From an uncultured Clostridia bacterium (GTDB lineage: Bacteria > Bacillota > Clostridia > Oscillospirales > Ruminococcaceae), in the NCBI GenBank assembly GCA_945876435.1, contig CAMCOD010000003.1, forward strand, positions 1 to 64,000: a DNA stretch of 64,000 bases. The letters are read 5' to 3'. Position numbers and translations under genes: made by a program. Positions 25,304-32,245 of this stretch are shown here, one piece after another. Below the pieces are notes generated by a model. The model was not told the origin of the DNA, searched no databases, and saw nothing but the letters and a program-made list of their open reading frames with translations. Position 1 is the stretch's first letter; every line of letters starts with the position of its first letter.

Positions 25304-25504
25304 ATGCTCTCGCCTGTTCTGCTTCTGGCTCTGTCTAATATGCTTTTTTTCGCCCTGCATATCACCACCATCGGATCTTTTCCTCGTCCCCTCTCCCGGG
25401 AGGAGGAGCTGGACTGCCTGAAACGGATGAAAGAAGGGGATCCGGAAGCCAAAAGCAAGCTGATTGAACACAACCTGCGGCTGGTGGCTCACATTATTAA
25501 AAAG
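25304..25504 (+). pseudogene. sigK: sigK 5' segment (pro-sigma-K residues 1-67), interrupted by intervening element; rejoinable, not decayed
   Basis: MLSPVLLLALSNMLFFALHITTIGSFPRPLSREEELDCLKRMKEGDPEAKSKLIEHNLRLVAHIIKK, pro-sequence plus start of sigma region 2; SD GAAAGGA 8 nt upstream. Confidence 0.95.
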
Positions 25505-27119
25505 GGATAATGCAAAAGGAAACTTTTTTCCGGTCAAGGACAGCCTCATAAGAAATTCCCAGCTTTAAATGAATATGCAGAACGATTTTATCCTTTGTAC
25601 TGCTCCTTTTGACGAACACCCGGTCCAAAATTGTGGTCGCAAGCGCTGAATTTATGCCATTTTGGAAGGACAGCTCCTGTTCCAAAAAATGACGCAGCTC
25701 CTTTATCTGTTGGTCAGCAGTCCGGCTGTTTTCCTTTTCCTCCCATAAATCCTTTTTTCGCTGCTCCAGTTCAGAGATCCGATCCTTAAAACCCTTGTTG
25801 CGCAGCTTAAATTCGCGGATCGAAATCGCTCCGTCCAGGTTCAGCTCCAGCAAACGGTCCTTTTTAGCTTCAAGGGCCAGCAATTCTTCCTCCACTTTTC
25901 CAAGTTCATGACTGAAATCCTGTTTTCCGGTCACTGTTTGTATCACCTGCAAAACAGCATCGATCATGGCATCTTTGTTCTGGATGATCTGCCTGAAGAT
26001 CTCTGCCATGATCTCGTCCAACTCACTGCTTCGCAGCTGCGGCATAGAACAGCCCGCCTTCCCTCTTTGACGATAGCACCGGCAGTTCCAAACCTCTTTT
26101 CCACTTTTCAATAAGCGCCTGTGAAAACCGCAGTTATGCTCCTCACAGATAAGCTTGCCGCTGTAAGGATAGCGATTGTGAAAGCTGGCAGCAGGAACGT
26201 GTTCCTTCATCTGCTTGCTTCGCTGCTTATAGAGGGTGTTGGCACGGTTCCAGAGATCCTCTGACACGATTGCCGGAATGGATGGATCCGGATACAGAAT
26301 CCACTCACTTTCATCGAGAAAGATCCTACGCTTGCTGCGGTAGTCCACAGTTTGACTCTTGTTGGCACAGTACCAGCCCTTATATTTGGGGTTGCATAGG
26401 ATATTTCGGATCGTCCGAACATTAAAGGAATTGCCTTTGCGGCTGGTATACCCTTCCTTTAAAAGAATCTGCGAGATTTTCCGCACGCCAACCTGCTGAT
26501 TGGCGTAAAGCTCAAAGATCCTCCGAACCACTCTGGCCTCCTCCTCCTTGACAGTCAGCACACAATCCTTCTTGTCATACCCCCAAAGTTGATCATTCCC
26601 CAGCACATGACCATTGTGAATCGCCTGGCGGAAACCGAATTTCAAGCGTTCTGATAGCTTTCGTACCTCATCCTGTGCCACACCGGCCATAACAACCAGT
26701 CGAAATTCGCTGTCTGAATCCAAAGTATTGATATTATCATTCTGAAAAAAGACTCCCACATTGTACTCCAGCAGCTCCTGCGTATATTTGATGCTGTCCA
26801 GCGTACTTCGGGAGAAGCGGGAAATTTCCTTGGTGATAATGAAATCAAAGCAGCCTGCTTTGGCATCGGCGATCATACGATTGAAGCTATCCCGCTTTTT
26901 GGTGCTGGTACCGCTGATGCCTTCATCCACATAGCCTTCAACAAAAGTCCAGTTTGGCTTGCTCTGGATCAGCTCCCTGTAGTACTGCACCTGATTCTCC
27001 AGACTGTTTCGCTGTTCGTCCTTGTCGGTGGACACGCGGGCGTAGAATGTCACCCTCAACGGCAAATCAAAAAGGGACTTGCCTTTTTTCATTTCACTGC
27101 GGATCTTCAGAATATTCAT
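25497..27119 (-). CDS. Large serine recombinase (SpoIVCA-like, element integrase/excisionase)
   Basis: FYARVSTDKDEQRNSLENQVQYY resolvase motif; FDFIITKEISRFSRSTLD; recombinase domain, zinc ribbon, coiled coil; stop codon overlaps the core. Confidence 0.96.
   Translation of the reverse strand: MNILKIRSEMKKGKSLFDLPLRVTFYARVSTDKDEQRNSLENQVQYYRELIQSKPNWTFVEGYVDEGISGTSTKKRDSFNRMIADAKAGCFDFIITKEISRFSRSTLDSIKYTQELLEYNVGVFFQNDNINTLDSDSEFRLVVMAGVAQDEVRKLSERLKFGFRQAIHNGHVLGNDQLWGYDKKDCVLTVKEEEARVVRRIFELYANQQVGVRKISQILLKEGYTSRKGNSFNVRTIRNILCNPKYKGWYCANKSQTVDYRSKRRIFLDESEWILYPDPSIPAIVSEDLWNRANTLYKQRSKQMKEHVPAASFHNRYPYSGKLICEEHNCGFHRRLLKSGKEVWNCRCYRQRGKAGCSMPQLRSSELDEIMAEIFRQIIQNKDAMIDAVLQVIQTVTGKQDFSHELGKVEEELLALEAKKDRLLELNLDGAISIREFKLRNKGFKDRISELEQRKKDLWEEKENSRTADQQIKELRHFLEQELSFQNGINSALATTILDRVFVKRSSTKDKIVLHIHLKLGISYEAVLDRKKVSFCIIPF
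25512..25523. repeat. Left terminal inverted repeat arm of the sigK element
   Basis: GCAAAAGGAAAC, inverted partner GTTTTCCTTTTGC at 31718-31730; both 12 nt from the predicted crossover in the joined circle. Confidence 0.8.
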
Positions 27120-27124
27120 TGCCG

Positions 27125-27301
27125 TCAGCCTCCCTGATCAACTTCTGCATCCCATGGGGCAGGGTATCGGAAAAACTCCGGCAAGTCTGTCATCGAATGT
27201 ATCAAATCCACTGCTTTTTCGCAGGTATTTTTGGATAGAAACCCACTGCTGCAAAGCCGCTCCACCAAAATCTGCATAATTTCCTGTTCTATGCTCTCCA
27301 T
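27125..27301 (-). CDS. 58-aa small ORF immediately upstream of the recombinase
   Basis: MESIEQEIMQILVERLCSSGFLSKNTCEKAVDLIHSMTDLPEFFRYPAPWDAEVDQGG; strong SD AGGAGGTGATGGTATG; 5-nt gap to recombinase start; missing from supplied ORF track. Confidence 0.75.
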   Translation of the reverse strand: MESIEQEIMQILVERLCSSGFLSKNTCEKAVDLIHSMTDLPEFFRYPAPWDAEVDQGG

Positions 27302-27318
27302 ACCATCACCTCCTATTC

Positions 27319-27346
27319 AATTTATGTGGGAATAGGCTTCTCATAG
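27319..27346 (-). promoter_or_regulatory. Weak candidate mother-cell (sigma-E-like) promoter for 58-aa ORF and recombinase
   Basis: Reverse strand CTATGA-N14-CATAAATT; -10 resembles CATACANT; by eye only. Confidence 0.25.
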
Positions 27347-27602
27347 AAGAAAACAGCTCTTGTTGCTTCACACTTTACTCTCTTTTTGCAAAATTGCATG
27401 TAGAAAAATCAATACAACAATATTTACAGGATATGCCCATGGCATGCCACACAGGCATAAGCTTCTGTCAAACCCCATCCACCAATCGCTTTTTCGATAA
27501 AAGCCTTCGCTTGATCCCATCAAAAATCGCAACGCACCTTCCGCAAAGTCAGTAAAAATAGCCTGTTTATTTAAAATAAATGAAAAAATATGCATATAAT
27601 CA

Positions 27603-27631
27603 TTGACTTTTTCCGATTAATCATGTATATT
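27603..27631 (+). promoter_or_regulatory. Sigma-A promoter for cargo ABC importer
   Basis: TTGACT (27603-27608) - 17 nt - TATATT (27626-27631). Confidence 0.75.
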
Positions 27632-27715
27632 ATCTTATATCATATACAAGTTACAGCGATCCTGTTCAGCTGTTCTGTTTCGAAATCTATTTTATTCTTC
27701 AAAGGAGAAACGAAA

Positions 27716-28477
27716 ATGAAAAAAATACTTACACTGGTTCTCGCCGGCGTTATGGCCCTTTCGATGGCTGCCTGCGGCACAAAAGAAAGCAAAAAACTGA
27801 CCCTTGCTACCTCGGCAGATTTCCCGCCCTATGAATATGTTGCGGACGACGGCTCCTATGCCGGTATTGATGTTGAGATCGCAAGCGCCGTCGCTGAAAA
27901 ACTGGGCATGGAATTTGAAGTGGTAAACATGAACTTTAACTCCATTGTAACCTCTGTTTCCACCGGAAAATATGACATGGGCATGGCCGGTCTTACGGTC
28001 ACGGAAGACCGGCTGAAATCGGTGGACTTCTCCCAGTCCTATGCCACCGGCGTTCAGGTGGTTATCGTGAAGGAAGACAGCCCTATCACATCGGTAGATG
28101 ACCTGTATGCGGAAGGCGCCTCCTATGCCGTCGGCGCACAGATCTCCACCACCGGCGCCATTTACTTCGGCGACGATATCGCAGGTGGAGCTACCACCTG
28201 TACGCTTCAGGAATTTACCTCCGGCGCTGATGCCATCGCGGCTCTCACCGCAGGAAAAATTGACTGCGTGATCATCGACAACGAGCCAGCCAAAAGCTTT
28301 GTTGCCGCCAACGATGGCCTGAAGATCCTGGACACCGAATATACCGTTGAGGATTATGCCATCTGCGTAAAAAAAGGCAACAGCGAACTGCTGGAGAAAA
28401 TCAATACCGCTCTGAATGAATTGACTGCTGACGGCACGATCCCATCCATCATCAGCAAATACATCCCGGCGGAATAA
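27716..28477 (+). CDS. Amino-acid ABC transporter substrate-binding lipoprotein
   Basis: Lipobox LSMAACG; LATSADFPPYEYVADDGSYAGIDVEIASAVAEKLG SBP family 3 motif; SD AAAGGAGAAACGAAA. Confidence 0.95.
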   Translation: MKKILTLVLAGVMALSMAACGTKESKKLTLATSADFPPYEYVADDGSYAGIDVEIASAVAEKLGMEFEVVNMNFNSIVTSVSTGKYDMGMAGLTVTEDRLKSVDFSQSYATGVQVVIVKEDSPITSVDDLYAEGASYAVGAQISTTGAIYFGDDIAGGATTCTLQEFTSGADAIAALTAGKIDCVIIDNEPAKSFVAANDGLKILDTEYTVEDYAICVKKGNSELLEKINTALNELTADGTIPSIISKYIPAE

Positions 28478-28504
28478 TTGATGAAACAATCGGAAGAAAA
28501 ACCT

Positions 28505-28545
28505 GAGGACAGGTGTAAATTCAGTGCCTGTCCTCCTGTTTTGTT
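28505..28545 (+). terminator. Attenuator-like hairpin between SBP and permease genes
   Basis: GAGGACAGG...CCTGTCCTCC then TGTTTTGTTT. Confidence 0.55.
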
Positions 28546-28557
28546 TATGGAGGATTC

Positions 28558-29283
28558 ATGAGCGCTTGGTTTGAAGATTTAAAAGAGCAGTTTATTCTTA
28601 ATTTCATTGAGGGTGACCGCTGGAAATGGCTGCTGGACGGTTTAAAAATGACCTTGCACATCGCCTTCTTTGCCGTCATTCTTGGTATTGTGATCGGCGT
28701 GGCGGTAGCGGTCATCCGTTCCTCGTGGGACCAAAACAACCACAAGATGCACGGCCTTTCCCGGGCTGTTATGGCTGTGCTGAATTTTATCAGTAAAGTT
28801 TATCTCACCGTTATCCGCGGCACACCAGTTGTGGTGCAGCTGATGATTATGTACTATGTCATCTTTGCCTCCTCAACCAATGCCCGTATGGTGGCAACCC
28901 TGGCCTTCGGCATCAACAGCGGCGCTTATGTTGCGGAGATTTTCCGCAGCGGCATCATGTCCATTGACAAGGGCCAGTTCGAAGCCGGCCGTTCCCTGGG
29001 CTTCAACTATATCCAGACCATGTGGTACATTATTGTGCCTCAGGCTCTGAAAAATGTGTTGCCCGCCCTGTGCAACGAGTTTATTGCTCTGCTGAAAGAA
29101 ACGTCCGTTGCCGGTTATGTGACCATCACCGACCTTACCCGGGCCGGTGACCTGATCCGTGGACGCACCTTCTCCGCGTTTATGCCGCTGATCGCCGTCG
29201 CTTTGATCTATCTTGCACTGGTCATGGCTCTTACCTGGCTGGTGGGCAAACTGGAAAGGAGACTGAGAACCAGTGACCACTAA
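28558..29283 (+). CDS. Amino-acid ABC transporter permease
   Basis: [52 protein letters not shown]. Confidence 0.95.
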
Positions 29284-30025
29284 TAACGCAAATAACAATG
29301 TTCTGATTCAGGTTAAAGACCTGACCATGGATTTCGGGGACGTGCATGTTTTAAAAGGCATCTCCACCGAAATTAAAAAGGGAGAAGTTGTGGTCATTGT
29401 CGGCGCTTCCGGCAGCGGCAAAAGCACCTTCCTCCGTACACTGAACCTGCTGGAAGAACCCACCAGCGGCCAGATCCTCTTTGAAGGGGTCGATATCACC
29501 GACAAAAACGTGAATATCAACCTTCACCGTCAAAAAATGGGTACCGTATTTCAGCAGTTCAACCTGTTCCCCCACATGACGATCCTGAAAAACATGACCA
29601 TCGGCCCTATGAAGCTGCTGAAAAAAAGCCAAGAAGAGGCAGAAGCTGAGGCAATGGAGCTGCTCGGACGGGTTGGCCTGGCGGATAGAGCCAACGCCTA
29701 CCCCAGTCAGCTCTCCGGCGGCCAGAAACAGAGGGTTGCCATTGTCCGCGCCTTGGCTATGCACCCGGACGTGATGCTCTTTGACGAGCCAACCTCCGCC
29801 CTGGATCCGGAAATGGTCGGCGAAGTGCTGGAAGTTATGCAAAATCTGGCGAAAGAGGGCATGACTATGGTGGTCGTGACCCATGAGATGGGCTTTGCCC
29901 GAGAGGTCGCCGACCGAGTCATGTTTATCCACGACGGTATCATTGCGGAGGAAAATGATCCGCAATCGTTCTTCACCAATCCACAGCACCCCCGACTGAA
30001 GGAATTCCTGTCAAAAGTACTGTAA
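29273..30025 (+). CDS. Amino-acid ABC transporter ATP-binding protein
   Basis: [42 protein letters not shown]. Confidence 0.97.
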
Positions 30026-30072
30026 AAAAGAATCAAAAGGATGCCTCTGTTTTTTTATGGGTACCCCTATCA

Positions 30073-30126
30073 GCCCATCCGCCGCATACCTCTCTCCTGC
30101 ATCTGCGGCGGATGGGTTTTCTTTTC
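30073..30126 (+). terminator. Rho-independent terminator
   Basis: CCCATCCGCCGCATACC...GCATCTGCGGCGGATGGGTTTTCTTTT. Confidence 0.75.
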
Positions 30127-30247
30127 CCTTTTTGCCGCGGGATTATGTTTTTTCGAATACCGGTTCCAACATTTGGGGAAAAGTATTTTCTTCCTGCTGG
30201 CAATATGATATGATTGTTTCAATATTTGACGAACAGGAGGATATTTT

Positions 30248-31612
30248 ATGTCAAATCTTCGATCTCAGACAGTGGATATGGTCAACGGTCCATTGCTGAA
30301 AAACGTCTGGATATTTGCCGTTCCGTTGATGCTGACCAATCTTCTGCAAATGCTGTTCAATGCAGCGGATACAGTGGTTGTGGGAAGATTTGCGGGAGAA
30401 CAGGCTCTGGCTGCTGTCGGAGCAACCGGTTCCATCTGTTTCCTGCTGATTTCCCTGTTTAACGGGCTCAGTATTGGAAGCAATGTTTTGATTGCCAGAT
30501 ATCTTGGGGCGAACGATCATGAAAAAATAGAAAAATCCGTTCATACCTCGATCACTATGGCAGCGGTCAGCGGTCTGTTTCTGGCTGTACTGGGCTTCTT
30601 CCTGTCCAAACCCCTGCTGAACATGATGTCAACTCCCAGTGATATCATCAATCTGAGTGAGTTATATATGCGTATCTACTTTGTGGGTACCTTTTTTGGC
30701 TTGATTTATAACTTTGGCGCCTCCATTCTGCGTGCCAAAGGCGATACCAAACGCCCTTTGTATTTTCTCTTTATCAGCGGCGTCACCAATATGGTATTGA
30801 ATCTGCTTTTTGTGGTGGTTTTCAAGATGAGCGTTGCCGGCGTTGCCTTTGCAACCGTCATTTCTCAGGCACTTGCCGCGGTATTGGTGTGCATTACGCT
30901 GATCAAAGAAACGGATTCCACCCACTTGGATCTTCAAAAGCTGGGCATTGATCTTTCCATGGCTTGGAACATCATTAAAATCGGCGTACCGGCAGGAATC
31001 CAAGGTATGGCCTTTTCTCTGAGCAATGTTGTGGTGCAGTCCAGCATCAACTCCTTTAATTCTTCCATTATCGTTGCAGGAAACAGCGCCAGCTCCAATG
31101 TTGAAAACTTTGTTTACATCGGTATGTCGGCCTTTACGCAGGCATGTATCACCTTTACCAGCCAAAACATCGGTGCCAACAATCTGAAACGAGTGAAGGA
31201 AATATTTAAGACTACCATGCTTTTGACCATTATCAGCGCAGCGTCGATCGGCTTTATTGTGTGGTATTTTGGTGAATTTTTCCTGGTTCTTTATACCAGC
31301 GAAGCAGCGGTTATTGAAGCCGGCATGATCCGTCTGTTCTGGGTTTCTCTGTTTTTGGTGCTGAACGGTATTCTGGACGTTTTTGTCGCCTCCATGCGAG
31401 GCATGGGGTATTCCACACTGCCAACCATCGTCATGATCGCCGGAATTTGCGGCGTGCGTCTGACCTGGCTGTGGACCGTCTTCCCGATTTACCGGTCTCT
31501 TAAGGTTATTTATATGTGCTTCCCGCTCAGCTGGACGATCACCAGCATTATTCTGGGATTCATCTGGATCAAATGTCACCGTAAACTGATGAAAACAATG
31601 CAAGAGGCATAA
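30248..31612 (+). CDS. MATE family efflux transporter
   Basis: MVNGPLLKNVWIFAVPLMLTNLLQMLFNAADTVVVGRFAG; 12-TM. Confidence 0.95.
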   Translation: MSNLRSQTVDMVNGPLLKNVWIFAVPLMLTNLLQMLFNAADTVVVGRFAGEQALAAVGATGSICFLLISLFNGLSIGSNVLIARYLGANDHEKIEKSVHTSITMAAVSGLFLAVLGFFLSKPLLNMMSTPSDIINLSELYMRIYFVGTFFGLIYNFGASILRAKGDTKRPLYFLFISGVTNMVLNLLFVVVFKMSVAGVAFATVISQALAAVLVCITLIKETDSTHLDLQKLGIDLSMAWNIIKIGVPAGIQGMAFSLSNVVVQSSINSFNSSIIVAGNSASSNVENFVYIGMSAFTQACITFTSQNIGANNLKRVKEIFKTTMLLTIISAASIGFIVWYFGEFFLVLYTSEAAVIEAGMIRLFWVSLFLVLNGILDVFVASMRGMGYSTLPTIVMIAGICGVRLTWLWTVFPIYRSLKVIYMCFPLSWTITSIILGFIWIKCHRKLMKTMQEA

Positions 31613-31730: not shown

Positions 31731-31742
31731 TTTCGCTGTTCA

Positions 31743-32245
31743 AAAAATACTACTCCACCTACCGGGATCAGGAGGATTTGATCTCAATTGGCACCATTGG
31801 TCTGATCAAAGCGGTTTCCAGCTTTGATTATACAAAAGGAACCAAATTCGCTACTTATGCTTGCAGATGTATTGAAAATGAAATCCTGATGTATTTTCGC
31901 AGCAAAAAGAAATCCGCTCATGACGTATACCTCAGCGATTTCATTGATGTTGATAAAGACGGAAACAGCATTACTCTCAACGATATCATCCCCGACGACG
32001 TAAACATTCTGGATGCCATTGATCTGCATTTTCAATCGGAACAGTTATACCGTTACATTCAAAGCCGGCTCAGCCCACGGGAACAAACCATCCTGAAGCT
32101 TCGCTATGGGCTTTATGGTACAAAACCTTTGACTCAAAGAGAGGTCGCGCAAAAACTGAACATTTCCCGTAGCTATGTATCCCGCATCGAGAAAAAAGCC
32201 TTGGAAACCTTGCGAACCTGTCTTTCGCAAGGCAAAAACAACTGA
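31743..32245 (+). pseudogene. sigK: sigK 3' segment (sigma regions 2-4), separated from its start by the element; rejoinable
   Basis: KKYYSTYRDQEDLISIGTIGLIKAVSSFDYTKGTKFATYACRCIENEILMYFR...RLSPREQTILKLRYGLYGTKPLTQREVAQKLNISRSYVSRIEKKAL; in frame with 25304-25504. Confidence 0.96.

What the first reader, a model, noticed from the sequence alone, without database searches (positions are those of the whole stretch)
27125..27301. Unlisted 58-aa ORF with a strong SD just upstream of the recombinase: candidate directionality factor or regulator
Minus-strand MESIEQEIMQILVERLCSSGFLSKNTCEKAVDLIHSMTDLPEFFRYPAPWDAEVDQGG has AGGAGG 7 nt before ATG and ends 5 nt before the recombinase start. It was below the ORF-track cutoff. 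Established: large serine recombinases usually need a recombination directionality factor to excise, and a small skin-encoded one is known in C. difficile. Inference: this is the only plausible small partner in the element, but it may instead be a translational leader.
Basis: partly seen in the sequence, partly recalled or inferred. Interest (0 to 1): 0.6.

Follow-up and report, generated by a model that had tools for sequence, protein, structure and literature searches.

The report
Excision-partner gene of a sigK-splitting element
The 58-residue reading frame is a real, conserved gene that travels with the enzyme which cuts a mobile element out of the spore gene sigK, and it most likely tells that enzyme to cut out rather than insert, as a similarly placed small gene does in Bacillus subtilis.

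Summary
The ORF is exactly where stated (27125-27301, minus; AGGAGG 7 nt before ATG; stop 5 nt before the recombinase ATG). It is a genuine gene. Of 79 relatives of the recombinase with readable upstream DNA (Oscillospiraceae genomes plus the window), 78 carry a homologue in the same place and strand, typically 64 aa and overlapping the recombinase start by 26 nt. It evolves under purifying selection (dN<dS in 37 of 37 disjoint pairs). At least 73 of 81 recombinases abut a split sigK, so this is a compact skin-like element (6,243 bp in the window; att core AA at 25499 and 31742; rejoining restores SigK in frame). A mother-cell-type -10 (CATA) sits about 27 nt upstream of the small gene in 72 of 78 loci and almost never upstream of the recombinase, so the two probably form one sporulation operon. 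Apart from the recombinase it is the only gene common to the elements. Best reading: the recombination directionality factor (RDF) of this skin lineage, positionally like Skr of B. subtilis skin, but with no detectable similarity to the RDFs compared. RDF activity is inferred, not shown. The leader-peptide alternative is disfavoured by protein-level conservation. New member of a known kind.

The parts
27125..27301 (-). 58-aa ORF, proposed recombination directionality factor (acidic, computed pI 4.2; AF2 helical hairpin at residues 2-18 and 24-36)
27309..27314 (-). Shine-Dalgarno AGGAGG of the small ORF
27319..27326 (-). CATAAATT, mother-cell sigma (sigmaE/sigmaK-type) -10-like element; CATA at the equivalent place in 72 of 78 loci
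25497..27119 (-). large serine recombinase, 540 aa (Resolvase, Recombinase and Zn-ribbon domains)
27129..27134 (-). GGGAGG, likely Shine-Dalgarno of the recombinase, lying inside the 3' end of the small ORF
   Evidence: by inspection
25304..25500 (+). 5' part of sigK up to the att core
31742..32245 (+). 3' part of sigK from the att core
25499..25500 (+). core dinucleotide AA at the sigK-5' junction (inferred crossover)
31742..31743 (+). core dinucleotide AA at the sigK-3' junction (inferred crossover)
25512..25522 (+). attP inverted-repeat arm GCAAAAGGAAA
31720..31730 (+). attP inverted-repeat arm TTTCCTTTTGC
27590..30025 (+). cargo: amino-acid-type ABC transporter (binding protein, permease, ATPase)
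   Evidence: permease and ATPase by inspection
30248..31612 (+). cargo: MATE transporter

Best explanation
The 58-aa ORF encodes the recombination directionality factor of a small skin-like element in sigK. Shown: it is a conserved gene paired with this recombinase; the element splits the only sigK found in the genome; rejoining at the att core restores SigK in frame; a mother-cell-type -10 motif precedes the small gene. Inferred: during sporulation the mother cell transcribes small ORF and recombinase together, translation is coupled, the small helical-hairpin protein binds the recombinase (probably near its coiled coil, by analogy with other RDFs) and biases it to attL x attR, the element is excised, and sigmaK is made.
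For: Homologue in 78 of 79 recombinase loci, same strand, mostly overlapping the recombinase start. Purifying selection. Only gene besides the recombinase common to the elements: the next cargo family reaches 13 of 62 loci. Outside recombinase-selected loci, the family profile finds only 2 of 100 related genomes, both with the sigK recombinase. At least 73 of 81 recombinases abut sigK. -10-like CATA upstream of the small ORF in 72 of 78 (shuffles mean 8.6, max 17) versus 1 of 78 upstream of the recombinase. Genome has no intact sigK elsewhere and has SpoIIID. Rejoined SigK has 233 codons with no stop inside. Precedents: Skr in B. subtilis, same position, required for excision; CD1234 in C. difficile, sigmaE/SpoIIID-controlled, acidic, transcription start 14 bp upstream of its start codon.
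Against: No direct evidence of RDF activity or binding. Some serine recombinases (for example CcrAB, PMC5595907) excise without an RDF, and CcrB/CcrC are among this recombinase's best NCBIfam matches, below cut-off. No sequence similarity to SprB, TP901-1 Xis, A118 gp44 or a Bacillus Skr-like ORF, although known RDFs are mutually dissimilar. The window copy ends 5 nt short of the recombinase instead of overlapping it. A SpoIIID-like motif is not enriched.
Confidence: 0.8

Rival explanations
1. It is a translational leader: its translation opens or tunes the recombinase ribosome-binding site, and the peptide itself does nothing.
For: It ends next to, or usually 4-53 nt inside, the recombinase gene, and its 3' end contains the likely recombinase Shine-Dalgarno; coupling is therefore likely.
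Against: Purifying selection on the amino-acid sequence of the non-overlapping part, 37 of 37 pairs dN<dS; positions such as L12, L13, A30 and P41 strongly conserved; AF2 core pLDDT about 94. A pure leader needs none of this.
Confidence: 0.07
2. It is a recombinase-binding regulator other than an RDF, for example an inhibitor or stability factor that keeps the recombinase off outside the mother cell.
For: Strict linkage to the recombinase fits any partner protein; SHOCT-like hairpins are not specific to RDFs.
Against: It appears co-expressed with the recombinase from a mother-cell-type promoter, which fits activation at the time of excision better than repression; the position matches Skr.
Confidence: 0.1
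3. The ORF is a spurious reading frame.
For: Short; no Pfam, PHROG or meaningful NCBIfam match for the window copy.
Against: 78 of 79 conservation, codon-level selection, conserved start region and promoter motif.
Confidence: 0.01

Closest known systems
Skr, RDF of the B. subtilis skin element (PMC6957869)
   Same: Small protein (64 aa; modal length here 64) encoded directly upstream of the skin recombinase, overlapping its start in most relatives, mother-cell promoter before the small ORF, element in sigK.
   Different: No detectable similarity between this family and a Skr-like ORF from a Bacillus sigK-bearing contig (B. subtilis Skr itself was not obtained). Overlap is 4-53 nt here, or a 5-nt gap in the window, versus 101 nt. 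The element is 3.8-8.4 kb in complete examples, with non-phage cargo in the window, whereas skin is a defective prophage.
CD1234, RDF of the C. difficile skin element (PMC5025042)
   Same: Small acidic protein from a sigK element, sigmaE-type promoter just upstream, needed for excision there.
   Different: CD1234 is a separate gene from the recombinase CD1231, which has its own sigmaA promoter; sequences were not compared (not obtained).
SprB, RDF of phage SPbeta (NC_001884 yotN)
   Same: 58 aa, acidic, mother-cell expressed in sporulation (per the papers).
   Different: No sequence similarity (hhalign probability 0.6%); encoded at the opposite end of the prophage from its integrase.
SHOCT / SHOCT_2 domains (PF09851, PF20612)
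   Same: Short helical hairpin with a G-[LI]-[IL]-S turn (resemblance by inspection).
   Different: Only weak, below-cut-off matches in a few members and none for the window copy.

Membership tests
RDF of a large serine recombinase | encoded by the same element as the recombinase | tested here: met
RDF of a large serine recombinase | promotes attL x attR and blocks attP x attB | not testable with these tools
   needs a recombination assay
RDF of a large serine recombinase | binds the cognate integrase | not testable with these tools
RDF of a large serine recombinase | specific partner: present with the recombinase, absent without it | tested here: met
   78 of 79; 2 of 100 relatives, both with the sigK recombinase; no match in the phage collection
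Skr (B. subtilis skin RDF) | ORF immediately upstream of and overlapping the sigK-element recombinase | tested here: met
   most relatives overlap by 4-53 nt; the window copy itself has a 5-nt gap
Skr (B. subtilis skin RDF) | mother-cell promoter upstream of the small ORF | tested here: met
   sequence motif only
Skr (B. subtilis skin RDF) | sequence homology | tested here: inconclusive
   no match to a Bacillus Skr-like ORF from L183; Skr itself not obtained
SHOCT / SHOCT_2 | match above Pfam gathering score | tested here: not met
CD1234 | sequence homology | not tested
   sequence not available in the collections used
skin-type sigK element | element splits sigK, att sites flank it, rejoining restores the frame | tested here: met

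The most novel reading that the evidence does not exclude
SHOCT-like helical-hairpin proteins encoded just upstream of large serine recombinases are a general, unrecognised RDF superfamily in Clostridia, of which the sigK family is one branch; more distant recombinases outside sigK also have SHOCT-like small ORFs upstream on the same strand.
Probability: 0.25. Interest if true: 0.75.

Novelty: new member of a known kind. Interest (0 to 1): 0.5.

Why it matters
RDFs share no common sequence and are usually found one at a time by experiment. Here one gene yields about 78 natural recombinase-partner pairs with a common attB and readable half-sites, so directionality control can be tested across a whole family and mined for reversible DNA-integration tools. 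It also extends skin-type control of sporulation to many gut Oscillospiraceae, for which I found no description in the papers searched.

Tried and rejected
Pfam, NCBIfam and PHROGs on the ORF: no family. Direct genome-contig scan with the 58-aa protein found nothing; reaching relatives through the recombinase did. Comparison with SprB, TP901-1 Xis, A118 gp44 and a Bacillus Skr-like ORF: no similarity. PDB by sequence and by fold of the AF2 model: nothing meaningful, as expected for a short hairpin. SpoIIID motif enrichment: none. The literature held has no paper linking SHOCT proteins to integrase directionality in the searches made.

Full report
Observation. The ORF lies at 27125-27301 on the minus strand, 58 aa, with AGGAGG 7 nt before ATG and a stop 5 nt before the recombinase ATG. 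The surroundings form a skin-type element: the 5' part of sigK ends and the 3' part resumes on either side of a convergent large serine recombinase, an amino-acid ABC transporter and a MATE transporter. The two sigK pieces are the only sigK found in this genome; the next best hit, 45% identical on another contig, is taken to be sigE. SpoIIID is present. A species of the same genus has an intact sigK, the empty-site form.

Attachment sites. The junctions share AA at 25499 and 31742. Rejoining there gives a 233-codon SigK in frame, and the circle would carry attP with 11-bp inverted arms TTTCCTTTTGC / GCAAAAGGAAA around the core; element length 6,243 bp. The crossover position is inferred from the arms and the shared bases.

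Relatives. A genome scan with four sigK-element recombinases (A1) returned 80 loci, 53-84% identical, almost all Oscillospiraceae or unclassified Clostridia by record title. At least 73 of 81 recombinases, window included, abut a sigK half; several of the others lie at contig ends. In 79 loci the recombinase start and at least 150 nt upstream are readable. A profile from seven small ORFs finds a homologue on the same strand in 78; the exception, L156, has a recombinase match that lacks the first 46 residues. Lengths cluster at 64 aa; 72 of 78 overlap the recombinase start, 37 of them by exactly 26 nt. The shortest, 37 aa in L164, keeps only the hairpin region. The loci were fetched by recombinase, so the converse was tested separately: the family profile finds only 2 of 100 related genomes, this one and G004, both with the sigK recombinase.

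Selection and structure. Outside the overlap, all 37 disjoint pairs have dN<dS, means 0.25 and 0.75; over 1318 unsaturated pairs the median dN/dS is 0.46. AlphaFold2 gives helices 2-18 and 24-36, pLDDT about 94 for residues 11-30, with a low-confidence tail. The proteins are acidic, median pI 5.1, window 4.2. SHOCT-type Pfam models touch a few members below cut-off; Foldseek found nothing significant.

Expression. CATA lies within 40 nt upstream of the small ORF in 72 of 78 loci, mostly at -25 to -28 (shuffles mean 8.6, max 17), and CATANNNT in 49 (mean 2.0, max 7). The same window before the recombinase has 1 and 0. This matches the -10 of mother-cell sigma factors (consensus from general knowledge); a T-rich -35-like block sits 14-18 nt further up. 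The operon is inferred from this arrangement. The SpoIIID motif is not enriched.

Partner logic. Among 62 loci with 3 kb of DNA beyond the small ORF, no cargo family reaches more than 13 loci; larger clusters are the recombinase, the small ORF or overlapping frames of these, by inspection. Ten complete elements, window included, range from 3.8 to 8.4 kb. If this recombinase needs an element-encoded RDF, the small ORF is the only general candidate. That it needs one is inferred.

Known systems. In B. subtilis, skr (64 aa) lies directly upstream of spoIVCA, overlaps it by 101 nt and is required for skin excision (PMC6957869). In C. difficile, CD1234 (72 aa) is the skin RDF under sigmaE and SpoIIID (PMC5025042). 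The present family is like Skr by position and promoter; homology to Skr or CD1234 is not shown.

Orientation. The same crossover in sigK is used in both orientations: 44 elements with the recombinase in the sigK direction, 29 against. Aligning the rec-proximal arms places AA at the core in one class and TT in the other (by inspection), and the recombinase tree needs 13 switches, at least 5 forced by starred branches.

Limits. Activity, binding and transcription are untested. Start codons were chosen by alignment. Shuffles and disjoint pairs only partly correct for relatedness. The parts list includes cargo for completeness.

Noticed in passing
L089-L168 and window 25499 / 31742: The same sigK att site is occupied in both orientations (44 versus 29), with element core AA in one class and TT in the other; orientation changed repeatedly on the recombinase tree.
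   Followed up: partly
L012, L014, L018, L022, L025-L027, L032, L033, L035: More distant serine recombinases (35-47% identical; sigK not seen in those whose wider flanks were fetched) also have SHOCT-like small ORFs upstream on the same strand; the sigK family profile does not link them significantly.
   Followed up: partly
upstream of the small ORF in about half of L089-L168, for example L097 about -75 to -40: A terminator-like hairpin with T-run ends right at the -35 region; T-run of 5 or more in 41 of 78. It may insulate the operon from read-through.
   Followed up: no
window 27590-31612; L104, L119, L130, L143, L164: Cargo between the att sites differs from element to element; in the window it is an amino-acid ABC transporter and a MATE pump, not phage genes, and L164 has a 2,002-aa ORF.
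   Followed up: partly
L183 and L193: Bacillus-type sigK-bearing viral contigs carry SpoIVCA-like recombinases with 55-aa Skr-like ORFs overlapping the start by about 71-74 nt.
   Followed up: partly
window 25497-27301: If recombinase and presumed RDF share one mother-cell promoter, it is unclear how the recombinase is made for integration, although the elements evidently have moved.
   Followed up: no
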